Notes: generated by a model from the sequence alone, not told the origin. Positions 5,194 through 26,811 are shown, counted from the first letter of the stretch. The stretch is 64,000 nt of DNA from a virus (IMGVR_UViG_3300032236_000971:1-64000); one strand, 5' to 3'. Numbers and translations are program-made.

Positions 5194-5271
5194 CCTCTGT
5201 TGGTGTAGCGGTCAAACATACCCGCCTTTCAAGCGCGGAGATCATCGGTTCAAATCCGATACAGAGGACCA
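5194..5271 (+). tRNA. tRNA-Glu(TTC)
   Basis: Acceptor CCTCTGT/ACAGAGG, anticodon loop CTTTCAA, T-loop TTCAAAT, encoded CCA. The anticodon stem has one mismatch or bulge. Confidence 0.9.
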
Positions 5272-8312: not shown

Positions 8313-8423
8313 ATGTATAAAGCATACATACTAGCGATTGATAACATAAACAAATTAGTTTGGTTGGTACTGATGCTACATTGGTTAGCTGACGGTACGA
8401 AGATAGTTGATATCTTCAAATGA
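8313..8423 (+). CDS. 36-residue membrane-like peptide
   Basis: Short ORF starting MYKAYILAIDNINK with a hydrophobic stretch LVWLVLMLHWLA, AGAGG upstream, and an ATGA overlap with the next start. The overlap supports translation. Function unknown. Confidence 0.5.
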   Translation: MYKAYILAIDNINKLVWLVLMLHWLADGTKIVDIFK

Positions 8424-9061
8424 AAACCATCGCTCTCTTCAACCATCATCCTGAATGTTCTGATCAGTGTTGTAAGGGTATGATGAGAGCATTAGAACCT
8501 CACTACAAAATAAAATGGTTTACTGTTCGTGATGATATCAAAGAGGTAGTTAAGAATGTTGATTGTATTGCTTTCCCTGGCGGGATTGGTGACTCTGATA
8601 GCTTTTTTGACTACTTTTCTCGCACACGTTCTAATGTTATTTCCTCGTTCATTGACGATGGGGGTAAATATCTTGGTATATGCATGGGGGCTTACTGGGC
8701 TGGGTCTCGTTACTTTGATATTCTTGACAACGTTAATTGCGTTCAATACATTAAGCGTCCTACCGCTGAGATAAGAAGAAGTTACGGAACAGTAGCTGAT
8801 ATTGAGTGGCTAGGTCAAAGAGAAAAGATGTTCTTTTATGACGGATGTACATTCGTTGGTTCCGGACGATATGATACAATTGCTAAGTACGCTAATGATG
8901 AGCCGATGGCAATAATTCAGGGTAATGTAGGTATCATAGGTTGTCATCCTGAAAGCGAAGAGTTTTGGTATGAAGAACCGTACAAATACCTCAGCGGTTA
9001 TTATCATGACGGTAGGCATCATAACCTACTACTTGAGTTTGTAGATAAATTATGGAAATAG
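8420..9061 (+). CDS. BPL_N-type glutamine amidotransferase-like protein
   Basis: A 213-residue protein of the class I glutamine amidotransferase fold, closest in pattern to the N-terminal domain of eukaryotic biotin-protein ligase (BPL_N family). Seen: early FNHH strand, AFPGG, nucleophile elbow GICMGAYWAG (Cys about 94) and a late CHPES with a candidate catalytic His. The substrate is unknown. Together with the oxygenase gene it overlaps, it forms a small enzymatic island inside the tRNA array, so a role in nucleic acid or tRNA modification is possible but unproven. Confidence 0.72.
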   Translation: MKTIALFNHHPECSDQCCKGMMRALEPHYKIKWFTVRDDIKEVVKNVDCIAFPGGIGDSDSFFDYFSRTRSNVISSFIDDGGKYLGICMGAYWAGSRYFDILDNVNCVQYIKRPTAEIRRSYGTVADIEWLGQREKMFFYDGCTFVGSGRYDTIAKYANDEPMAIIQGNVGIIGCHPESEEFWYEEPYKYLSGYYHDGRHHNLLLEFVDKLWK

Positions 9062-9733: not shown

Positions 9734-9807
9734 ATCGGTGTGATGTAATGGTAACATGACGGTCTCCAAAACCGTTCTTCCGGGTTCGAGTCCTGGCACC
9801 GGTGCCA
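9734..9807 (+). tRNA. tRNA-Trp(CCA)
   Basis: Acceptor ATCGGTG/CACCGGT, anticodon loop CTCCAAA with stem ACGGT/ACCGT, encoded GCCA. Confidence 0.93.
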
Positions 9808-9811
9808 TTTT

Positions 9812-9928
9812 AGGTTGTGTTCAGCATACAATGGATGAACCAGTCGGTCGTGGGTTCAATCCCCACCAGGAGCTCTTTGCTTCTGTAGCTCAGTGGTAGA
9901 GCAACTGCCAAAAAGTACAACCTGTTGA
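9812..9928 (+). ncRNA. Scaffold RNA unit A: circularly permuted tRNA head (Y-RNA-like)
   Basis: First of seven units with one scaffold: 7-bp stem P1 (9812-9818/9917-9923), an 11-base bulge GTTCAGCATAC, and a 3' GTTGA that can pair with TCAGC in the bulge. The head is a permuted tRNA: T-arm GTGGG-TTCAATC-CCCAC (9850-9866), acceptor 3' strand CAGGAGC, loop TCTTT, acceptor 5' strand GCTTCTG (9879-9885), D-arm GCTC-AGTGGTA-GAGC, then ACTG pairing back to CAGT at 9841-9844. The ends lie where the anticodon loop would be. This matches the tRNA-mimic idea published for bacterial YrlA Y RNAs. Confidence 0.8.
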
Positions 9929-9937
9929 ATTTAGTGC

Positions 9938-9966
9938 TTGACTTATTCGTAGATAAAGCGTATTAT
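9938..9966 (+). promoter_or_regulatory. Promoter of the scaffold RNA array and Ro60-like gene
   Basis: TTGACT at 9938-9943, 17-base spacer, TATTAT at 9961-9966. The start point would be near 9973, just before unit B. Confidence 0.8.
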
Positions 9967-9982
9967 ATGTTTATTGAGTTTG

Positions 9983-10107
9983 AGATTGACCGTTCAGCAA
10001 ACAACATTTAGCATCGCGCTAAGTATGACTGGCTTTATAACTGGTCCAGGTGGTTATTTCTTCGGGCTTCCACCGTAAAAAAATGAAAGAAGAAGTCAAT
10101 CTGTTGA
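9983..10107 (+). ncRNA. Scaffold RNA unit B: cloverleaf-like head
   Basis: P1 AGATTGAC/GTCAATCT (9983-9990, 10095-10102), bulge ending TTCAGCAAAC, 3' GTTGA. Head: hairpins TTAGC/GCTAA (10008-10022), GACTGG/CTGGTC with loop CTTTATAA (10027-10046) and GGTGG/CCACC (10049-10074), closed by CATTT/AAATG. The order is that of a normal tRNA (D, anticodon, T), but without a canonical T-loop. Confidence 0.7.
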
Positions 10108-10112
10108 GTTTT

Positions 10113-10206
10113 AGGAAGCTTTCGGCAAACAATTATTGATTGGTTCAACTCCAATACCAGCCCCTGGGCTAGTACGCCTCGTGTGAGGCAAATTGCTTCC
10201 TGTCTA
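10113..10206 (+). ncRNA. Scaffold RNA unit C: permuted tRNA head
   Basis: P1 AGGAAGC/GCTTCCT (10113-10119, 10195-10201), 11-base bulge TTTCGGCAAAC. Head: AATT/AATT, T-arm ATTGG-TTCAACT-CCAAT (10139-10155), acceptor-like stem ACCAGCCC/GGGCTAGT with one mismatch and a very short cap, D-arm-like GCCTC-GTGT-GAGGC. T-arm before D-arm means permuted, like unit A. The bulge TCGGC and 3' GTCTA differ from the other units, with one compensating change (A-U to G-C) and one mismatch. Confidence 0.72.
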
Positions 10207-10211
10207 GTTTT

Positions 10212-10306
10212 AGGATACCTTCAGCAAACATAACTTGATATTGGTTATCAATCTGACTTTTAATCAGACTTAGCGGTTCGAATCCGCAGTTAGTGTATCC
10301 TGTTGA
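10212..10306 (+). ncRNA. Scaffold RNA unit D: mini-tRNA head with Lys(TTT) anticodon loop
   Basis: P1 AGGATAC/GTATCCT (10212-10218, 10295-10301), bulge CTTCAGCAAAC, 3' GTTGA. The head is a compact, unpermuted cloverleaf: 5-bp stem TAACT/AGTTA, hairpin TGATA-TTGGT-TATCA, anticodon arm TCTGA-CTTTTAA-TCAGA (10252-10268), T-arm GCGG-TTCGAAT-CCGC (10273-10287). The anticodon loop equals that of tRNA-Lys(TTT). No CCA; the would-be acceptor end is locked inside P1. Confidence 0.78.
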
Positions 10307-10317
10307 GTTAGAGTTCT

Positions 10318-10380
10318 AGGATTGTTACAGCATAAATGCACTTGATTTGTAATCAAACCCGCAAAGGGCAATCCTGTTGA
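10318..10380 (+). ncRNA. Scaffold RNA unit E: Thr(TGT) anticodon-arm mimic
   Basis: P1 AGGATTG/CAATCCT (10318-10324, 10369-10375), bulge TTACAGCATAA, 3' GTTGA. The head is a 4-bp, 7-base-loop hairpin TTGA-TTTGTAA-TCAA (10342-10356) plus a small hairpin CCC-GCAAA-GGG. Fourteen bases match the anticodon arm of this phage's own tRNA-Thr(TGT) exactly. Confidence 0.75.
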
Positions 10381-10391
10381 GTTAGAGTTTA

Positions 10392-10462
10392 AGGGTCAGT
10401 TCAGCAAACAAAACGACGCTAACATCGCATAAATGCCTAGCGGCACAAGTTGACCCTGTTGA
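10392..10462 (+). ncRNA. Scaffold RNA unit F: simple hairpin head
   Basis: P1 AGGGTCA/TGACCCT (10392-10398, 10451-10457), bulge GTTCAGCAAAC, 3' GTTGA. Head: CGCTA/TAGCG (10417-10421, 10438-10442) with inner GCAT/ATGC. The inner CGCATAA is one base from a CAT-type anticodon loop, which may be chance. Confidence 0.7.
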
Positions 10463-10466
10463 GTTT

Positions 10467-10524
10467 AGATTCAGTTCCGCAACCAATCAAATCGACTTGA
10501 AATCGACCAAAGTGAATCTGTTGA
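10467..10524 (+). ncRNA. Scaffold RNA unit G: Ser(TGA) anticodon-arm mimic
   Basis: P1 AGATTCA/TGAATCT (10467-10473, 10513-10519), bulge GTTCCGCAACC, 3' GTTGA. The head is a hairpin TCGA-CTTGAAA-TCGA (10492-10506); the loop equals that of tRNA-Ser(TGA). GTTGA runs directly into the ribosome binding site of the Ro60-like gene, so folding of this unit could affect its translation. Confidence 0.72.
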
Positions 10525-10538
10525 AAAGGAGAAGTGAA

Positions 10539-11972
10539 ATGAATACCTTTGTAAATGCCGTTGTTAATCAGTCTGCTCGTACCGAAAATGGTATGAAGGC
10601 TCGTCAGTCCACTGCTAATGCATTGACTGATCTGTTCTTCAAGATCGGTGCTATGCGTGGCCAGAATGTTATCCCTGCATGGACTGCTGCTTACGTTCAG
10701 GACGCTAAACTTGCTGCACGTATTGCTCTTTGGGCTCGCGATGTTCGTGGTGGTGCTGGTGAGCGTAAGATCTTCCGCGACATCCTTGTTGATCTTGCCA
10801 AGACCGATCCTTTTTATGGGGTAGGTCTTGCTCGTAAGATCCCTGAGTTGGGTCGTTGGGATGACTTCCTTGTTTTTGTTGGAACCCATCTTGAGGTTTA
10901 TGCTTTCGAAACTATTCGCGAAGCTCTTGAAGCTGGTGACGGTCTCTGCGCAAAGTGGATGCCTCGTCAGGGCGACGTAGCTGTAAAGCTCCGTAAGTAC
11001 CTTGGTTGGACTCCTAAGTTTTATCGCAAGCGTCTGGTTGAATTGACCAAGGTCGTTGAAACTCAGATGTGTGCTAACGACTGGGATAACATCAATTTTA
11101 ACCATGTTCCTTCTGTTGCTTCTGGTCGTTACAAGAAGGCGTTCTCTCGTCATACTGAAAAGTATAAGGAATGGACTGCTGCTCTTGTTTCTACTGATCC
11201 AAAGGTTAAGGAAACTGTGAAGGTTAACGCTGGTGCGGTCTATCCGTACGATGTGTTGAAGGGTGTAATCAACCACTATGGCCAGTACAACACCTCTAAC
11301 CTTCAGCATATTCAGGCTCAGTGGGATGCGCTTCCTAACTTCGTTGGTAATGCTAACATCCTTCCGCTTGTTGACGTTTCTGGTTCAATGACTTCGAAGG
11401 CTGGTGGTTATCAGTCAAAGTCAGAAGTAACCTGCCTTGATGTTGCTGTGTCTCTTGGTTTGTATCTCGCAGACAAGAACACTGGTAAGAAGTTCAAGAA
11501 TACGTTCTTGACTTTTTCTAGCAAGCCTTCGCTGCTTCATCTTCAGGGCAACATCCTTGATAAGGTAAAGCAGATGGTTACTTCAAAGTGGGAAATGTCA
11601 ACTAACTTGCACCTTGCTTTTGAAAAAATATTGTATGTTGCTCTTGAGTGGAAGGTTCCTCAGTCAGAAATGCCAGAAGTGTTGTTGATCCTTTCTGATA
11701 TGCAGTTTGATCAGTGCGCTCGTTACGACGACTCTGCTATGGAAATGATTAAGCGTAAGTATACTGAAGCAGGTTACGATGTACCTAACATTGTGTTCTG
11801 GAATCTCAATGCTCACGATAATGTTCCTGTCAAGTATGACACTCGTGGTGCTGCTCTTGTTTCTGGTTTCTCTCCTTCCATTGTTAAGGCTGTTTTACAG
11901 GCTGAAATGGGTAACTTTACGCCAGAGGCTATCATGATGCAGACTATCATGAACCCACGTTACGATTACTAA
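10539..11972 (+). CDS. Ro60-like TROVE/vWA RNA-binding protein (DUF2828-type)
   Basis: A 477-residue protein. The N-terminal 260 residues are a helical-repeat TROVE-type ring domain (start MNTFVNAVVNQSARTENG, then KLAARIALWARDVRGGAGERKIFRD, typical of Ro60 and DUF2828 proteins). The C-terminal part is a von Willebrand A domain with a MIDAS motif DVSGSM (Asp279, Ser281, Ser283). Ro60 proteins bind misfolded RNAs in the ring cavity and Y RNAs on the outside, and work with nucleases in RNA quality control. ATG at 10539 follows AAGGAGAAG. It is the last gene after seven scaffold RNAs and ends at a strong terminator, so RNA array and protein form one unit. Confidence 0.87.
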   Translation: MNTFVNAVVNQSARTENGMKARQSTANALTDLFFKIGAMRGQNVIPAWTAAYVQDAKLAARIALWARDVRGGAGERKIFRDILVDLAKTDPFYGVGLARKIPELGRWDDFLVFVGTHLEVYAFETIREALEAGDGLCAKWMPRQGDVAVKLRKYLGWTPKFYRKRLVELTKVVETQMCANDWDNINFNHVPSVASGRYKKAFSRHTEKYKEWTAALVSTDPKVKETVKVNAGAVYPYDVLKGVINHYGQYNTSNLQHIQAQWDALPNFVGNANILPLVDVSGSMTSKAGGYQSKSEVTCLDVAVSLGLYLADKNTGKKFKNTFLTFSSKPSLLHLQGNILDKVKQMVTSKWEMSTNLHLAFEKILYVALEWKVPQSEMPEVLLILSDMQFDQCARYDDSAMEMIKRKYTEAGYDVPNIVFWNLNAHDNVPVKYDTRGAALVSGFSPSIVKAVLQAEMGNFTPEAIMMQTIMNPRYDY

Positions 11973-12056: not shown

Positions 12057-14087
12057 ATGAAAAGAATTTTAACCGCAATAGCTATGCTATTTGCATTAGT
12101 TACAACTGCATACGCAGACAGCGTTCTTATTATCGACGCAGGTTACAGTAATGTTACAGCAAACGTAAAAGGTCGTATCGAGGCGGCTGGTCATACTGTT
12201 ACTGTTACAACCGACGTTTCCCTTATTCCAACTAATAAGAACACATATCAACAGGTATGGGACCTTAGATATAGTGCAGCTTTGACAGCTGGTGAACAAA
12301 CAAGTTATACATCATTCGTCACATCTGGTGGTTTCGCTTATTTTGTAACTGAAAATCCTGGCTGTTGTATGAACCGCAACAATTCAGTTGCTGCTTTGAT
12401 TACTTCACTTGGTGGTGGTGCAACTACGATTGGTGCAAATTATAATACTGCTGCTGACGTAGAAAGTAATGTCAATACGAAGTATATGACTTCCGGTATC
12501 ACCGTTAACTACGCTGCTGTTTCCACAATCATAAACAACCAAGGTATTCCACTTATCTCAGACTCCAATAATGAAGTTTCTGGTATGAGTTGGATTGGTC
12601 GTGCAGGTGCATTAGGTCAGGGTGTAACAGGAACTATCGTTACTGTTGCGGATACTAACTGGCTTGACAGCGTTCGTTTCAGTACAGCACAAAACGCAAC
12701 TGTTGCTCAACAACAAAACGTAACTGCTCTTGACGACATCATTCGTGGTATCGTTGCTGGTACTGTTTCTGGTACGATCAGCGCGAATGGTAATGGAAAC
12801 GGCGTCGGCGCTAATGCTCCGCCTCCACCTCCAACTATTGTATCAACTGTCCCAGGAACACCAAAAGTTACATCTAGTTCTGCTAATGGAACTGCTGTTG
12901 TTTCTTCTGCTTCTACAAGAGGTACAACTGTTACTGTTTCTAATGTAACAACTGCGCCAACTGTGTATGTTGCTAGTGCTAAAGATGCAGCTGTAAATAA
13001 TTCAAAAACAATTGAAGTGACAAGAACAACAACGGTTGTTGGTACTACACCAAGAACGACTGTTAACACAGCTACAACACCAGTTACTACGGTTACAACA
13101 ACTACAACTCCAAGAACAACTACAACTGTCACAACTCCTGTTACGGTTACAACTTATTCTGATGGCTCTACAACTTCAGCTGATGGTACGCCAGTAACAA
13201 CTACATCAACAACTAACACAAGCACTCAAACAACTTCAACAACAAATGAAGTCGTAACAACCACGATTAAAGATGCGATAGTTAAGTCAGCTTCTTCAGA
13301 TGAGAAAGCTTCTGTATCAGCAACTGGTTTAAAAGATGCTCTTGCTGTTCGCAGATTTAATCCATTCATAGTAGACGCATTGTCAACTAAGGATGGTGCT
13401 TGGGCAACTCCAATGATGGGTTATGCAAAAACAGGAGACGGTTCATTTAGAACTAGTGCTCTTGGATTTGGTGCTCAATCAACTGTTGATGAAAATACTT
13501 TTGGTATTGCTGGTACATTTAGTAAACAAAACAGCCACGGTTATTTAAATTCATCTTCTGGTGCTGATTCATATGGAGCTACTGCTTATGTTCTATCAAA
13601 GCAAAGCGACGTTTGGGTGAAGGGGTCTGTTGGTTTTGATGTTTCTGAATATAACACAACCACTTCACTTCCAATTTTCGCCCTTGCTAATCAGAGCAAA
13701 GTGAAAGCTAAAAACTACTATGCTGATGTAACTTTCTATACAGCGCAGGAATTTTATGGCTTTAGACCATTAGCTGGCGTTGTTGTTACAAATTCAACCA
13801 TTGATTCTAAAGTTGAATCTGGTTCGCCTCTGCTTTCAACATTACCTCAGGATGATAGAGTTATTCAGGCTCGTCCATACGCTGGTGTAAGATATGACTT
13901 CAATGATAACATTGGCCTTGAAACAAGAATAACACAATCAAAAGATTTCAAAACAGTTGGACAGGCTCGTTTGACTGCTAACCAAGAAATGTTTAAAGAC
14001 GTGTTTTTCAACATTCAAGCTGGATTTGATAGAGGTTCAAATTACACTGCAGCTGTTGGAATGATTGGGTTGAAGATCAACTTTTAA
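12057..14087 (+). CDS. Large secreted outer-membrane beta-barrel (autotransporter-like) protein
   Basis: A 676-residue protein with a cleavable signal peptide (MKRILTAIAMLFALVTTAYA). Residues 21 to about 240 form a globular exported domain. A 160-residue Thr/Val-rich linker follows (imperfect TTT and VTT repeats, about 255-415). The last 250 residues show alternating beta strands with aromatic girdles and a terminal Phe, as in autotransporter barrels. AAGGAG at 12045-12050 sets the start; an upstream in-frame ATG is rejected because it lacks a signal peptide. Phages rarely encode such proteins. It may be inserted in the host outer membrane for adhesion, receptor masking or superinfection exclusion. 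Confidence 0.75.
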   Translation: MKRILTAIAMLFALVTTAYADSVLIIDAGYSNVTANVKGRIEAAGHTVTVTTDVSLIPTNKNTYQQVWDLRYSAALTAGEQTSYTSFVTSGGFAYFVTENPGCCMNRNNSVAALITSLGGGATTIGANYNTAADVESNVNTKYMTSGITVNYAAVSTIINNQGIPLISDSNNEVSGMSWIGRAGALGQGVTGTIVTVADTNWLDSVRFSTAQNATVAQQQNVTALDDIIRGIVAGTVSGTISANGNGNGVGANAPPPPPTIVSTVPGTPKVTSSSANGTAVVSSASTRGTTVTVSNVTTAPTVYVASAKDAAVNNSKTIEVTRTTTVVGTTPRTTVNTATTPVTTVTTTTTPRTTTTVTTPVTVTTYSDGSTTSADGTPVTTTSTTNTSTQTTSTTNEVVTTTIKDAIVKSASSDEKASVSATGLKDALAVRRFNPFIVDALSTKDGAWATPMMGYAKTGDGSFRTSALGFGAQSTVDENTFGIAGTFSKQNSHGYLNSSSGADSYGATAYVLSKQSDVWVKGSVGFDVSEYNTTTSLPIFALANQSKVKAKNYYADVTFYTAQEFYGFRPLAGVVVTNSTIDSKVESGSPLLSTLPQDDRVIQARPYAGVRYDFNDNIGLETRITQSKDFKTVGQARLTANQEMFKDVFFNIQAGFDRGSNYTAAVGMIGLKINF

Positions 14088-14498: not shown

Positions 14499-15050
14499 AT
14501 GCAAAAGACTATCGTAACGGCGCTTGCCGTTCTTGCTACAACGACTGTAGCTTTGGCTACTGACATACCTAGCAAGACTTCAGCACCAACTGCGCCAGCC
14601 GCATCCTTCACACAGGGATATTATGCTGGTATCAATGTTGGTGGTGATATGAACAAGGCAACCGTCTATTCTGGTGGTGCTGTTGCTGGGTGGAACGCCC
14701 TACCGTTCCTCGCAGTAGAAGGTACATACGACTTTGCCCGTCCACAGGCAAAGGTTGGAAAGAAGTTCAACTACGAAAACACTGTAGCTTTGAATGTTGT
14801 GCCTCAATACAAGGTTCCAATGACTGATTTCACCGCATATGGCGTTGGCGGTCTTGGATATCGTTTCGACAGCGTTTCAACTGTATCAGATCATGCCGTA
14901 TACAACTACGGTGCTGGTTTGAAGTATGATTTCGCCAAGAACCTTGAATTCGACGCACGCTACACACGTATCGAAGACGTGAAGAAGAAGTACAAGGCAT
15001 CTTCCCCAGCGGAAGATCGCGCAACGGTTGGTGTGAACTACAAGTTCTAA
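14499..15050 (+). CDS. Omp25/OmpA-like 8-stranded outer membrane protein
   Basis: A 183-residue protein with a signal peptide (MQKTIVTALAVLATTTVALA) and AAGGAG upstream. The mature part is a small beta-barrel: YYAGINVGGD start, alternating strands (AVYNYGAGLKYDF, LEFDARYTRIEDVKK) and C-terminal Phe in VGVNYKF. This is the pattern of the Omp25/Omp31 proteins abundant in Rhizobiales. Codon use is more C-rich than in its upstream neighbour, which suggests recent acquisition from a host. It could alter the host surface to block other phages. Confidence 0.8.
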   Translation: MQKTIVTALAVLATTTVALATDIPSKTSAPTAPAASFTQGYYAGINVGGDMNKATVYSGGAVAGWNALPFLAVEGTYDFARPQAKVGKKFNYENTVALNVVPQYKVPMTDFTAYGVGGLGYRFDSVSTVSDHAVYNYGAGLKYDFAKNLEFDARYTRIEDVKKKYKASSPAEDRATVGVNYKF

Positions 15051-21234: not shown

Positions 21235-21744
21235 ATGAATACACCATATCGTTTTGACCACACCTTTTCAGACCTTGCCAAGTTTGATAAATTTTTTGTT
21301 GGCTCGGATAAGTTCCTTTCAAAGGTTCAAGAAACTGCTGAGTATCTTGCTAATACAGCTGCGCACTCAGGTTATCCTCCGTTTAATTTGAAAAAGACAG
21401 ACGACAATGTCTATGTTATTGAGATGGCTGTTGCTGGTTTCGGTAAGCAAGACATTGAACTTACACTTGAAGATAACAAGCTAAAGATTGCTGGTCATAC
21501 AACTCTTGATACTATCACAGAAGATGGTTTAAATCAGCACTTCCTTCATAAAGGAATTAGCGACCGTCCATTCACTCGTACGTTTACCCTTGCCGATAAT
21601 GTTGTTGTTAACAACGCAAAGATGGTAAACGGACTACTTAAGATCTGGCTTGAGCATGTTATCCCAGAAGATAAGAAGCCAAAGAAGATCGACATCGAAT
21701 CAGAAGAGGAAGCAACTACTTCAAAGAGAGTTGCTAAGAAATAA
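21235..21744 (+). CDS. Small heat shock protein Hsp20/IbpA-like
   Basis: A 169-residue alpha-crystallin-domain chaperone. Core: YPPFNLKKTDDNVYVIEMAVAG (about 47-68), then strands of the ACD sandwich and the VVNNAKMVNGLLKIWLEHVIP end. A C-terminal charged tail follows. Hsp20 proteins hold unfolded proteins; they are a known accessory gene of T4-like cyanophages. AACAGGAG precedes the ATG, and a TATAATATG box lies about 70 bases upstream. Confidence 0.92.
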   Translation: MNTPYRFDHTFSDLAKFDKFFVGSDKFLSKVQETAEYLANTAAHSGYPPFNLKKTDDNVYVIEMAVAGFGKQDIELTLEDNKLKIAGHTTLDTITEDGLNQHFLHKGISDRPFTRTFTLADNVVVNNAKMVNGLLKIWLEHVIPEDKKPKKIDIESEEEATTSKRVAKK

Positions 21745-21991: not shown

Positions 21992-23377
21992 ATGGACAAC
22001 GTTTTCCTTCAGCTATTAGATCATCTCGAAGATTCCAACAAGCCAGTTTTTTACGACAATGACTATCCTATTTCTGGCAAACAATACAGAAATTTAATTA
22101 TCAGTTTTGCTCTCCATATGAAAAAGCATGGAGTCACGCAAAGCTCTGTAGTTGCTCTTGATGTGTATGGCGTTGTGGTTGGCACTGCTCTTAGTGTTGC
22201 TTGCGGCTTGATCGGTTGCTCTTGGATTAAGTATTCAATTGATTCAGCCAAGGCGGCTGACGAACTAAAATTGACTCACGTGTTTCATGAGTCGCCTCTT
22301 CAAGTTGAAGTCGATATTCCTTGTATCGAGCTAGATAACAGCTGGAACAAAGCGCCAGAAGGTATTGACCCTAATAGGCATATGTTTTTCAGCTATGACG
22401 ATGAAAACAAGCCATTTTTGATTGCTCACTCGTCTGGCACAACAGGTAACGTAAAGTTTATCCCTATCTCTTACAGAGAATATTTTGAACGAGTTCATAA
22501 CAACTTTGATATTCAGTTTCAAAACGCAAGGTACGGATGTTTTCTATTCCAGCCGCTGAAGTCGACAACTCAGTATAAAGCTGTCGCACTTATGTTGAAT
22601 GATATTCCTATCGTTCATAATATGACCTACGAGCAGCTGTCAAAATATCCAAGAGTTCATATTATTGGTTCGCATGGTCAGTTTGATTTCTTCATTAGGG
22701 GTAAAGAGCCTCCAACCAAGCCATACAAAGCGACGGCTGATCTATCGGGGTCAGCAACAACCGTAAAGTACCTTGAGAACATTTTCAAACATGTTGATCA
22801 GGTCAATATTGGTTATGGCGCTACCGAAACATCAAGAACTGCTAACAAAAGATTGTATTCAGTTGCTGACTTCAACGGGTCTTCTGGTTACCCATTTGAT
22901 GACGTTGAATTTAAAATTGAGCCTGATGGCACAGTTCTTGTTAAAACACCAAGATCTTATGATGAAGATGGAGATTGGTTTGCGCCAGGTGATCTCGGAT
23001 ATATGGAAAACGGCGAACTGTTCATCACAGGTAGAAAGAAAGAACAGATTAACGTTGGCGGTGTGAAAATTGATCCTGTGTCAATCGAAGAAGAAATCAG
23101 AAAAGTTGATGGTGTGTATGATTGTATGGTGTTTCAGGATGATAGACAACACGTTGAATATCAGCTGAGTGTTCTTATTGTCGCAGAAAAAAATAGGGCA
23201 GTGGCAATTGACGTTCACGCAGCCTGTAAAGAAAAGTTTGGTATGTCAAAGATACCGCAAAACTTATATTATGTAGATGAGCTACCTAAAACAGAAGGCG
23301 GTAAAGTGTCAAGAAAGCTTGCTATAGATATTGTGAAAGAATTTAAACATACAAAATACGTTTACGTTTTAAACTAG
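21992..23377 (+). CDS. ANL-superfamily adenylating enzyme (acyl/aryl-CoA ligase-like)
   Basis: A 461-residue AMP-forming enzyme. Motif A3 is AHSSGTTGNVKF (145-156), A5 GYGATET (274-280), A7 GDLGYMENGELFITGRKK (333-350), hinge and A8 region INVGGVKIDP, and A10 lysine in PKTEGGKVSRK near 440. It has all parts needed to adenylate a carboxylate; the acceptor (CoA, carrier protein, other) cannot be read. A short N-terminal domain makes it smaller than the typical 500-600 aa. Phages rarely carry such enzymes. Confidence 0.85.
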   Translation: MDNVFLQLLDHLEDSNKPVFYDNDYPISGKQYRNLIISFALHMKKHGVTQSSVVALDVYGVVVGTALSVACGLIGCSWIKYSIDSAKAADELKLTHVFHESPLQVEVDIPCIELDNSWNKAPEGIDPNRHMFFSYDDENKPFLIAHSSGTTGNVKFIPISYREYFERVHNNFDIQFQNARYGCFLFQPLKSTTQYKAVALMLNDIPIVHNMTYEQLSKYPRVHIIGSHGQFDFFIRGKEPPTKPYKATADLSGSATTVKYLENIFKHVDQVNIGYGATETSRTANKRLYSVADFNGSSGYPFDDVEFKIEPDGTVLVKTPRSYDEDGDWFAPGDLGYMENGELFITGRKKEQINVGGVKIDPVSIEEEIRKVDGVYDCMVFQDDRQHVEYQLSVLIVAEKNRAVAIDVHAACKEKFGMSKIPQNLYYVDELPKTEGGKVSRKLAIDIVKEFKHTKYVYVLN

Positions 23378-24049: not shown

Positions 24050-26512
24050 ATGAAGTTTTACACAAACGTTTATCAACGTGGTGATAGAGTATATTTGCGT
24101 GGGTATAACGAAGGTCAGCTTGTAGAGGAAATTATTCCCTACAAGCCTTATCTTTTTCTACCTAAGAAAGACGGTTTTTATCGTACGCTTGACGGTAAAG
24201 CGTGTGATAAAATGCAGTTTGAGAGCATTTCAGACGCCAAAGACTTTTGCGAAAAGTATAACGACGTTTCAAACTTCGAATACTTCGGTTTGACTCATTT
24301 TATGTACCTGTACATTTATGATAACTACCCTGGTGATATTCAATATGACCCGTCATTGGTTTCTGTAGTCAGTCTTGATATTGAGTGCGCGGCTGACGAG
24401 GGCTTCCCCGATATTCAAAAGGCAGATAAAGAGATTACAGCTATCACCATTCGCAAGAATGGTCGAAGTGTCGTATTCGGCTGCGGCGAGTTTGTAAGTG
24501 AAGATCCGTCAGTGACTTACGTCAAGTGCCCTGACGAGCAGACATTGCTATTCAAGTTTATTCAGGTTTGGAATCATCCTACTATGAAGCCAGACGTTAT
24601 GACTGGTTGGAATATCGAGTTCTTTGATATTCCTTATCTGATCAACCGTATGAAGCAGGTTATTGGAGAGCAGGAAACCAAGAAGCTTTCGCCTTGGAAG
24701 ATGCTTGACGAGCGTACTGTTGAGTTTAAAGGTAAAGAGAATCAGACATATAACATTATCGGCATCAACGTACTTGATTATTATCAGCTGTATCGTAAGT
24801 TCACGTTCGGCAATCAAGAGTCGTATAAGCTTGACTATATCTCGCAGATTGAACTTGGCGAACGTAAAATTGATTACTCTGAGTACGGCGACCTGTTGAG
24901 TTTGTATAAGAGCAACTTTCAAAAGTTCATTGAGTATAACATTCAGGATTGCGTGCTTGTTGATAGGCTAGATGAAAAGCTGAAGTTCATTGAGCAGGTC
25001 ATGGCGTTGGCGTATGACGCAAAGGTCAACTACAACGATACTATGACAACCGTTCGTCCATGGGATGTTATCATTCATAACTACCTGTTGGATCGTCGTA
25101 TTGTTATTCCTCAGTTCGAACCATCAAGGCAGCAGTTTGATCTTGTTGGCGGTCACGTTAAGGAAGTCAAGCCAGGTCTAAGCAAGTGGGTTGTTTCGTT
25201 TGACTTGAATAGTCTGTATCCGCATTTGATTATGCAGTACAACATAAGTCCAGAAACGTTTATCACTCGTTTACCTAACTTTAACTCTATTGATGAATTG
25301 CTTACTGGTGAAATGACACATAACTGTGAACACGCTATAGCGGCTAATGGATGTGTCTATCATAAAGACAAGCAAGGGTTTCTTCCTCAGCTTATGGAAA
25401 CAATGTATGATGACCGTACAAAGTATAAGAAGCTGATGATTGAAGCTAAGAAGCGATATGAACAAACTCACTCAAAAGAAGATGAGATGTTAATTGCTCG
25501 CTATCACAATATGCAGATGGCCAAAAAAATTCAGTTGAACTCAGCTTACGGCGCGATCGGTAACAGATACTTTCGTTGGTTTGACTTCAACAATGCTGAA
25601 GCTATCACTACATCTGGTCAGCTTTCTATCCGTTGGATTGAACGCAAAATGAATCAGTTTATGAACAAAATTTGTAAAACAAACGGCGTTGATTACGTTG
25701 TTGCTTCTGATACAGACTCTATCTACGTCACATTTGCTAAACTGATTCCAGAAGATGGAGACGAGCTTGAAGCTGTTAAGTTGATTGACAAGTTTTGCGA
25801 GAAAAAAATTCAACCATATATTGACAGTTGTTATGACGAGCTTGCGGGTATGATGAATGCATATCAACAGAAGATGCAAATGAAGCGTGAAACTATCGCT
25901 AACAAGGGCATCTGGAAAGCAAAGAAGATGTATATCCTCAACGCATGGAATGTTGAAGGTGTACAATATGATAAACCAAAGCTGAAAATTCAGGGTATTG
26001 AGGCTGTGCGTTCATCAACGCCTCATGTATGCCGTGAAAAGATTAAAGAAGCGTTGGCGATCATTATGAACGAGGATGAAGAAACATTACATCGGTTCAT
26101 TGAAAAGTTCCGTGAAGAGTTTCTTGAGTTACCGTTTGAACAAGTTGCGTTTCCTCGCGGAATTAAGGGTATAGATAAATATAAAGATGCCTCTGAAATC
26201 TATAAAAAAGGTACACCGATTCAGGTGAAGGGCGCTTTGCTTTTTAATAACCTATTGAAGCTTAAAAAGATAAAGTCTATACCGCCGATTGTTGATGGTG
26301 ATAAGATTAAGTTTGCTTATCTAAAAATACCTAATCCAATTCATGATACAGTTATCGCTGTACCTGATGAAATGCCGAAAGAGTTTAATCTAGATAAGTA
26401 TGTTGATCGTGAATTACAGTTTTCGAAAACATTTCTAGAGCCGATCAACTCAATCACGGAAGTTATAAATTGGCATACAGAAAAAAAATCAACACTAGAG
26501 GAGTGGTTTTAA
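24050..26512 (+). CDS. 43: DNA polymerase gp43 (family B)
   Basis: An 820-residue T4-type replicative polymerase with 3'-5' exonuclease. Exo I: DIECA with Asp110 and Glu112. Polymerase motif A SFDLNSLYPHLI (about 384), motif B KKIQLNSAYGAIGN (about 493), motif C ASDTDSIYV (about 553). Slightly shorter than T4 gp43 (898 aa). TAGGAG before ATG. In T4 the gene follows regA; here it is displaced more than 20 kb and has its own promoter. It works with the gp44/62 loader and the clamp (not in the window). Confidence 0.97.
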   Translation: MKFYTNVYQRGDRVYLRGYNEGQLVEEIIPYKPYLFLPKKDGFYRTLDGKACDKMQFESISDAKDFCEKYNDVSNFEYFGLTHFMYLYIYDNYPGDIQYDPSLVSVVSLDIECAADEGFPDIQKADKEITAITIRKNGRSVVFGCGEFVSEDPSVTYVKCPDEQTLLFKFIQVWNHPTMKPDVMTGWNIEFFDIPYLINRMKQVIGEQETKKLSPWKMLDERTVEFKGKENQTYNIIGINVLDYYQLYRKFTFGNQESYKLDYISQIELGERKIDYSEYGDLLSLYKSNFQKFIEYNIQDCVLVDRLDEKLKFIEQVMALAYDAKVNYNDTMTTVRPWDVIIHNYLLDRRIVIPQFEPSRQQFDLVGGHVKEVKPGLSKWVVSFDLNSLYPHLIMQYNISPETFITRLPNFNSIDELLTGEMTHNCEHAIAANGCVYHKDKQGFLPQLMETMYDDRTKYKKLMIEAKKRYEQTHSKEDEMLIARYHNMQMAKKIQLNSAYGAIGNRYFRWFDFNNAEAITTSGQLSIRWIERKMNQFMNKICKTNGVDYVVASDTDSIYVTFAKLIPEDGDELEAVKLIDKFCEKKIQPYIDSCYDELAGMMNAYQQKMQMKRETIANKGIWKAKKMYILNAWNVEGVQYDKPKLKIQGIEAVRSSTPHVCREKIKEALAIIMNEDEETLHRFIEKFREEFLELPFEQVAFPRGIKGIDKYKDASEIYKKGTPIQVKGALLFNNLLKLKKIKSIPPIVDGDKIKFAYLKIPNPIHDTVIAVPDEMPKEFNLDKYVDRELQFSKTFLEPINSITEVINWHTEKKSTLEEWF

Positions 26513-26811
26513 TGAGCGCAGATGATGATTTTGGTTTTAGCCTTGTTTCTGAAAAGGAACTCAAGGCGCATGAAGAAATGCTTAAGAAGAAAGTTGAGGA
26601 ACAATCAAAGGTTGTTCATGAAGCCTCAGTTCAGCTTCAACTAACCGCTGAACAAGCACAACAGAAGCTCTATGGACTACGTGATATGATTATGCCGTTG
26701 CTAAAGAACCTAGCTGCTGACCCATCTAAGGAATATATCTTATGGCCAGATAGAGCTGCTAAGATTCAGGCTTTCATCAAGAAGGTCGATGACTTTGTGG
26801 TCAGTGAATGA
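26512..26811 (+). CDS. Conserved T4-type phage protein
   Basis: A 99-residue acidic protein, start by TAATG overlap with gp43. N-terminal coiled coil (EEMLKKKVEEQSKVVHEA), then LYGLRDMIMPLLKNLAADP and EYILWPDRAAKIQAFIKKVD (about 53-93), a segment I recognise from T4-like phages as an uncharacterised family. Its place between polymerase and UvsX suggests a replication accessory role. Confidence 0.78.
   Translation: MSADDDFGFSLVSEKELKAHEEMLKKKVEEQSKVVHEASVQLQLTAEQAQQKLYGLRDMIMPLLKNLAADPSKEYILWPDRAAKIQAFIKKVDDFVVSE

What the first reader, a model, noticed from the sequence alone, without database searches (positions are those of the whole stretch)
9812..11972. Seven tandem scaffold RNAs with tRNA-like heads co-transcribed with a Ro60-like protein
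Seven units share a 7-8 bp stem (always starting AG and ending CT, otherwise different in sequence but always complementary), an 11-13 base bulge around TTCAGCAAAC and a 3' GTTGA that can pair with the bulge. Seven independently compensated stems are strong evidence for functional RNA. The heads differ: two are permuted tRNAs, two are cloverleaf-like, three are small hairpins, two of them with anticodon-like loops. Six units follow one promoter and run into the ribosome site of a TROVE/vWA protein. From established knowledge, bacterial Ro60 proteins bind Y RNAs whose modules mimic tRNA, usually one or two per genome. A diversified array of seven in a phage is, to my knowledge, not described. 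It may be a set of adaptors or decoys for RNA quality control, nucleases or anticodon-cutting defences.
Basis: partly seen in the sequence, partly recalled or inferred. Interest (0 to 1): 0.95.

Follow-up and report, generated by a model that had tools for sequence, protein, structure and literature searches.

The report
Phage Ro60-like protein's tRNA-mimic RNAs
Beside a phage gene for a relative of the human autoantigen Ro60 lie seven small RNA units with one constant stem-and-motif and interchangeable tRNA-like tops; the same RNA module sits beside this gene in very different phages and in some bacteria, and matches an RNA class thought to exist only in social amoebae.

Summary
Seven units (9812-10524) share AG-stem(7-8 bp)-TTCAGCAAAC-head-stem'-CT-GTTGA; all seven stems pair, with compensatory changes. 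Six follow a sigma70-like promoter and end at the ribosome site of a gene (10539-11972). The protein is DUF2828+DUF7788, not Pfam TROVE, but its AlphaFold model matches Ro60 over its full length.

The array is not unique. The module (stem, 3-nt linker, CAGCAA, head, stem', G) lies beside this gene in phages of Listeria, Bacillus, Enterococcus, Staphylococcus, Campylobacter, Mycobacterium, Fusobacterium, cyanobacteria and Felix O1 relatives, and in bacterial assemblies. A sequence-only permutation test gives 144 real stems against 6 expected, and none of 222 sites on the other strand. Arrays of 3-9 are common. Heads mimic tRNA: T-arms, permuted tRNAs with intact acceptor stems, anticodon arms.

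A model built only from Dictyostelium Class I RNAs picks out the same phage units, and led to arrays I had missed. In ten bacterial loci RtcB follows directly.

Best reading: a second Ro60/Y-RNA system for tRNA damage and repair, probably self-regulated through the last unit. Binding, expression and function are untested.

The parts
9734..9807 (+). tRNA-Trp immediately upstream; U1 probably belongs to the tRNA transcript
   Evidence: ARAGORN, Rfam
9812..9928 (+). U1: stem AGGTTGTG/TACAACCT, core TTCAGCATAC, head = circularly permuted tRNA (T-arm, 3' acceptor, short loop, 5' acceptor, D-arm), tail GTTGA
   Evidence: YrlA RF02553 36.9 bits; 7/7 acceptor pairs
9938..9966 (+). sigma70-like promoter TTGACT-17-TATTAT in front of U2-U7 and the gene
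   Evidence: 10/12 matches
9983..10107 (+). U2: stem AGATTGAC/GTCAATCT, three-hairpin head
10113..10206 (+). U3: stem AGGAAGC/GCTTCCT, core TTCGGCAAAC, degenerate permuted tRNA head, tail GTCTA
10212..10306 (+). U4: stem AGGATAC/GTATCCT, cloverleaf head with anticodon-like loop CTTTTAA (UUU)
   Evidence: (tRNA 29.4 bits; Dicty_Class_I 24.2 bits)
10318..10380 (+). U5: stem AGGATTG/CAATCCT, small head with anticodon-like hairpin TTGA[TTTGTAA]TCAA (UGU)
10392..10462 (+). U6: stem AGGGTCAG/TTGACCCT, small hairpin head
10467..10524 (+). U7: stem AGATTCA/TGAATCT, head with anticodon-like hairpin TCGA[CTTGAAA]TCGA (UGA); ends just before the Shine-Dalgarno
10525..10530 (+). Shine-Dalgarno AAGGAG
   Evidence: sequence
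10539..11972 (+). Ro60-like RNA-binding protein (DUF2828 + DUF7788 vWA, phrog_850), 477 aa
11978..12003 (+). intrinsic terminator of the operon

Best explanation
This is an RNA-protein system of the Ro60/Y-RNA type built on a separate branch of the protein family (DUF2828/DUF7788) and on its own RNA module. Each RNA has a constant end, a 7-bp closing stem plus a single-stranded ACAGCAA-like motif, which is most likely where the ring-shaped protein holds it (inferred). Each RNA also has an exchangeable tRNA-like top: permuted tRNA, cloverleaf, or a lone anticodon arm. The closed or missing acceptor end means the tops cannot work as tRNAs; they most likely engage proteins that normally handle tRNAs, either recruiting repair enzymes such as RtcB and RNA ligases to the ring or occupying enzymes that cut tRNAs at the anticodon during infection (inferred). 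The unit that abuts the ribosome site in the leader most likely lets the protein limit its own synthesis when free RNA runs short (inferred). Shown here: the module, its conservation and link to the gene, the tRNA mimicry, the Ro60 fold, the leader position, and the RtcB neighbours in bacteria. Not shown: expression, binding, function.
For: Module and pairing. Link to the gene: 70 of 80 relative loci by the strict scanner, 13 of 18 reference phages at score 12 or more within 5-8 kb, 33 of 42 bacterial loci; in the 30 full-length relative loci all 73 units lie upstream and none in or after the gene; a protein-independent pattern scan found the gene at 2 of 9 stem-bearing sites and 0 of 111 stemless sites. 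Ro60 fold: top six PDB hits all Ro60/TROVE, E 7e-8 to 4e-5; vWA MIDAS residues invariant. tRNA mimicry: T-arm in 60/289 heads against 0.2 shuffled, T-then-D order 25 against 0, anticodon arms with YTNNNAA loops and 5-bp stems 45 against 1.9, acceptor stems at least 6/7 in 24 of 25 permuted heads. Leader: last stem ends 10-30 nt before the start codon in 60 of 90 loci. Repair link: RtcB directly downstream in 10 bacterial loci, control 0/118; metallophosphoesterase in 34 loci, control 1/118.
Against: No expression or binding data for any of these RNAs. The window's own 107.9-kb record has neither RtcB nor an RNA ligase domain, though it may be a fragment. RNA ligase presence in phages with the gene (17/30) does not clearly exceed phages without it (2/8). 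Many heads (161 of 289) have no tRNA feature that my simple tests recognise. Some phages carry the units far from the gene, and one (Milchi) shows none. Scanner-selected units are biased towards pairing, so only the permutation, strand and shuffle controls count.
Confidence: 0.62

Rival explanations
1. Decoys only: the tRNA-like heads are baits for host anticodon nucleases and other tRNA-targeting defences, and the protein merely stabilises them.
For: Heads include complete anticodon arms, 51 of 54 loops with A or U at position 36, many different triplets; phages face tRNA-cutting defences (PMC10264068, PMC12409363, abstracts); the authors of PMC7790460 suggest YrlA may inhibit an anticodon nuclease.
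Against: The same system occurs in bacterial assemblies directly before RtcB, which fits repair better; many heads have no anticodon loop; the A/U bias may reflect AT-rich genomes.
Confidence: 0.25
2. Quality-control scaffold: as for Deinococcus Rsr with PNPase, the RNAs tether the Ro-like ring to host exonucleases or gate the ring, and the heads only add stability.
For: Deinococcus Rsr is tethered by Y RNA to PNPase (PMC7790460); Ro60 fold.
Against: Would not predict such varied, repeatedly tRNA-like heads, nor many RNAs per genome.
Confidence: 0.3
3. Pure cis-regulation: the units are mRNA leader elements controlling the gene, not free RNAs.
For: Last unit abuts the ribosome site in most loci.
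Against: Units also lie 0.5-4 kb upstream, downstream of the gene (Lolly9, S-CoN_Ph8, L227), inside tRNA clusters and up to about 200 kb away, and inside tRNA anticodon loops.
Confidence: 0.08
4. Debris of tRNA genes: the heads are decayed tRNAs lying between chance hairpins.
For: Arrays sit in tRNA clusters; some heads still score as tRNA.
Against: Stems are maintained by compensation in many phyla; permuted heads keep acceptor pairing; strand bias is absolute in the permutation test.
Confidence: 0.02

Closest known systems
Bacterial Y RNA YrlA (Rfam RF02553) with Rsr, Salmonella rsr-yrlBA-rtcBA operon
   Same: End-closing stem, permuted tRNA head, Ro60-fold partner, RtcB neighbour in bacteria
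   Different: The Rfam YrlA consensus shows no CAGCAA motif and a different closing stem; no unit reaches the YrlA gathering score (best 47.8 of 69); partner is DUF2828/DUF7788, not TROVE; often 3-9 RNAs with diverse heads
Dictyostelid Class I RNA (Rfam RF01414)
   Same: Short closing stem, AG start, CUG(U) end, conserved 11-nt motif (Rfam consensus CCUUACAGCAA) next to the 5' stem, variable rest (PMC7919456); its model finds phage units as best hits
   Different: Best phage score 34.8 of gathering 41.5; reported only in dictyostelids; known partner is the RRM protein Rnp1A; no tRNA-like heads mentioned in what I read
Deinococcus radiodurans Rsr (2nvo), human Ro60 (9nen, 9nep), Thermus phage phiLo Ro60 (9l5y)
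   Same: Full-length fold match: helical repeats plus vWA with MIDAS
   Different: 11-16% identity; different Pfam families; sequence search of the PDB only marginal (E 0.09)
Mycobacteriophage 'Ro-like RNA binding protein' and phage Y RNAs (cited in PMC12282133, as predicted earlier)
   Same: Same protein family; Lolly9 carries three units including a permuted tRNA
   Different: I could not read the original paper; the shared module, small anticodon heads and wide spread are not mentioned in what I could read
Listeria phage cka15 CKA15_055
   Same: Same gene with three units directly upstream; its authors proposed that nearby abundant RNAs may be Y RNAs
   Different: Their most transcribed region is a ROOL-like RNA, not these units

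Membership tests
Ro60/TROVE proteins | Ro60 fold: helical-repeat ring plus vWA | tested here: met
   Foldseek top six all Ro60, E 7e-8 to 4e-5, TM 0.41-0.58, whole length; model pLDDT 78
Ro60/TROVE proteins | Pfam TROVE PF05731 / vWA_Ro60 match | tested here: not met
   Hits DUF2828 and DUF7788 only; PF05731 absent from 15 records; vWA_Ro60 in 1 of 21 at E 0.13
Ro60/TROVE proteins | vWA MIDAS motif (DxSGS, T, D) | tested here: met
   D279, S281, S283, T355, D387 invariant in 21 sequences
Ro60/TROVE proteins | Binds Y RNA and misfolded RNA | not testable with these tools
   needs biochemistry
YrlA Y RNAs (RF02553) | Score above gathering cut-off | tested here: not met
   36.9 bits for U1, best 47.8, cut-off 69
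YrlA Y RNAs (RF02553) | 5'-3' closing stem plus permuted tRNA domain | tested here: met
   for U1 and 24 other heads; most units have other heads
Dictyostelid Class I RNA (RF01414) | Short closing stem, AG...CUG(U) ends, conserved motif at 5' stem | tested here: met
   layout against PMC7919456; 14 of 15 hits with E <= 0.02 are scanner units
Dictyostelid Class I RNA (RF01414) | Score above gathering cut-off | tested here: not met
   best 34.8 of 41.5 bits; one T4 hit of 24.3 bits without the module
Dictyostelid Class I RNA (RF01414) | Partner protein Rnp1A, DUSE promoter | not tested
   eukaryotic features; no eukaryote data on hand
tRNA | Free acceptor end able to carry CCA and an amino acid | tested here: not met
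   permuted heads close the acceptor stem with a loop; small heads have none

The most novel reading that the evidence does not exclude
Phage, bacterial and dictyostelid RNAs form one ancient RNA class defined by a closing stem plus ACAGCAA, whose true partner is the DUF2828/DUF7788 branch of Ro60; the abundant Dictyostelium Class I RNAs, long of unknown function, would then be eukaryotic members of a phage-borne tRNA-mimic RNP system.
Probability: 0.45. Interest if true: 0.95.

Novelty: new variant of a known kind. Interest (0 to 1): 0.88.

Why it matters
It gives a widespread phage 'RNA-binding protein of unknown function' (682 GenBank phage records) a specific RNA partner with a readable layout: constant end, swappable tRNA-like head. 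It makes the role of Ro60-type particles in the fight over tRNAs directly testable in laboratory phages, and it offers a first lead on the partner and function of Dictyostelium Class I RNAs.

Tried and rejected
1) GTTGA pairing with the bulge: GTTG occurs in only 87 of 289 units; the position tested covaries weakly (T with A 33, T with T 15; A with T 17, A with A 14). Not adopted. 2) The cka15 highly transcribed region as Y RNA: it is ROOL-like; I could not place the paper's other active promoters on the three units. 3) T4 stable RNAs C and D as members: no module, and T4 has no DUF7788. 4) TROVE as the partner in contigs with units but no DUF7788: none found. 5) Derivation of the heads from the phage's own tRNAs: resemblance only, no copy. 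6) RNA ligase as a phage-wide companion: not clear. 7) Most pattern-scan hits are chance matches without stems or inside genes. 8) Chen et al. 2014 and the 2020 Ro60 review are not held, so priority for mycobacteriophage Y RNAs could not be checked.

Full report
What is there. The window is part of a 107,889-base virus record with a large tRNA cluster (29 tRNAs in the window). Directly after tRNA-Trp lies U1; after a sigma70-like promoter (9938-9966) lie U2-U7, then the Shine-Dalgarno and the gene at 10539-11972, then a terminator. All seven units have a stem starting AG and ending CT, a motif at or near TTCAGCAAAC and a 3' tail GTTGA (GTCTA in U3). On the aligned scaffolds all 48 cells pair and 14 cells carry changes on both sides, far above shuffles and above slid versions. 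Because the units were first recognised by their pairing, this count alone is partly circular; the tests below are not.

The protein. Pfam gives DUF7788 (1.9e-46) and DUF2828 (5.3e-18) and no TROVE; PHROGs gives phrog_850, 'RNA-binding protein'. A model built from 21 relatives (pLDDT 78) has Ro60/TROVE structures as its six best PDB matches over the full length: a TROVE domain (9kop), Ro60 of Thermus phage phiLo (9l5y), Deinococcus Rsr (2nvo) and human Ro60 (9nen, 9nep). The MIDAS residues of the vWA domain are invariant. So it is a separate branch of the Ro60 fold. Homologues occur in 682 phage records.

The module is general. On 80 viral contigs with the gene, a strict scanner found 193 units on the gene's strand, 9 on the other and 4.5 in shuffles; 70 contigs had at least one. 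A looser scanner, score 12 or more, gave 190/2/2 for these, 38/0/0 for 18 named reference phages and 21/0/0 for nine distant contigs (forward/reverse/shuffled). The cleanest test starts from sequence alone: at every CAGCAA, does the 7-mer starting ten bases upstream have its reverse complement followed by G within 20-270 bases? Own 7-mers: 144 of 317; permuted 7-mers: mean 6.0, maximum 13; other strand 0 of 222. In reference and distant phages: 52 of 150 against 1.4 (maximum 5); other strand 0 of 86. The signal is sharp at offset -10, and about 94% of stems are followed by G when this is not required. In the 30 full-length contigs all 73 units lie upstream of the gene. The reference phages infect Listeria, Bacillus, Enterococcus, Staphylococcus, Campylobacter, Mycobacterium, Fusobacterium, Sinorhizobium, Vibrio, Cronobacter, Synechococcus and E. 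coli. Bacterial assemblies with the gene, including Brachyspira, Enterococcus and many Clostridia, give 69 forward against 3 reverse units in 33 of 42 loci; whether each is chromosomal or prophage was not settled.

The heads. Of 289 distinct units, 60 contain a T-arm (0.2 in shuffles) and 25 have the T-arm before the D-arm, the permuted order (0 in shuffles). In 24 of these 25 the two halves of the acceptor stem pair at 6 or 7 of 7 positions (12% in shuffles), closed by a short loop, so no acceptor end is left. Another 45 heads have a 5-bp stem with an anticodon-like 7-base loop YTNNNAA (1.9 in shuffles, maximum 3); 51 of 54 loops found with a 4-bp stem have A or U at position 36, with UGU, GUU, GAA, UUU and UGA the most frequent triplets. 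Three phages show the reverse construction: an intact tRNA whose anticodon loop holds the module with its ends joined by a short loop (S13, BUCT-ZZ01, Ci1). Both constructions place the module at the anticodon end of a tRNA.

The leader. In 60 of 90 loci the last unit ends 10-30 bases before the start codon. In many the G after the stem lies in or beside the Shine-Dalgarno. This suggests that the protein can shut off its own translation when free RNA is in short supply; it is an inference.

Neighbours. In ten bacterial loci a RtcB gene begins just after the DUF2828 gene, as in the Salmonella rsr-yrlBA-rtcBA operon (PMC7790460). RtcB and an RNA ligase also lie near the gene in Listeria phage cka15, and an RNA ligase near it in phage CBB. 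A metallophosphoesterase lies near the gene in 34 loci against 1 of 118 control loci. In mycobacteriophage LeBron the Ro-like protein, an RNA ligase and a polynucleotide kinase are each toxic when overproduced (PMC13148394). The cka15 protein was found in purified virions (PMC12282133).

Dictyostelium. Class I RNAs of social amoebae start AAG, end CUGU, have a short stem and an 11-nt motif beside its 5' strand, and were reported in no other organism (PMC7919456). The Rfam consensus motif is CCUUACAGCAA. Run on phage genomes, this model's best hits are the units: of 15 hits with E <= 0.02, 14 coincide with scanner units. In four phages where I had found few or no units near the gene, hits of this model led to units or arrays about 10-200 kb away (OC, CBB, DLP6, Ci1), whereas none of five hits opened in genomes without the gene had the module, including one T4 hit of E 0.0024. 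All scores stay below the family's cut-off, so this is shared design, by descent or by convergence, not formal membership.

Mechanism. Shown: constant module, its link to a Ro60-fold protein, tRNA-mimic heads, leader position, repair neighbours. Inferred: the module is the protein's binding site; heads bring tRNA-handling enzymes to the particle or keep tRNA-cutting enzymes busy; the leader unit regulates. I rate the RNP pairing at about 0.85, a role in tRNA damage or repair at about 0.55, and autoregulation at about 0.45.

Novelty. It works like a Ro60/Y-RNA particle, but protein branch, RNA module, number of RNAs and variety of heads differ; hence a new variant of a known kind.

Noticed in passing
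L201 6470-7021 (Listeria phage cka15, record 26195-26746): The most transcribed unexplained noncoding region of cka15 (PMC12282133) matches Rfam ROOL RNA, 90.1 bits (gathering 99.1), E 8e-17.
   Followed up: partly
L204 8896-9138, L205 8580-8830, L209 7012-7125: tRNAs of 113-121 nt, annotated as odd or pseudo tRNAs or not at all, carry the module in inverted order inside the anticodon loop.
   Followed up: partly
L243-L257: Operon of module RNAs, DUF2828 Ro-like gene and RtcB in rumen Clostridia and relatives.
   Followed up: partly
L261-L266, L270: Brachyspira species share a module RNA with a T-arm just upstream of the gene, in one case on a 2.6-Mb contig.
   Followed up: no
window 5194-5271: tRNA called SeC with anticodon TCA in a phage tRNA cluster; may be an opal-reading tRNA.
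   Followed up: no
window 12057-14084: 676-aa protein after the operon with no Pfam match; Thr-rich repetitive middle, looks like a secreted beta-barrel protein.
   Followed up: no
window 8420-9058, 14499-15047, 21235-21741, 21992-23374: Phage genes for a BPL_N/GATase-like protein, an OmpA-like barrel, Hsp20 and an AMP-binding enzyme.
   Followed up: no
L286 2909-3172: T4 stable RNAs C and D, annotated only as small stable RNAs, lack the module.
   Followed up: yes
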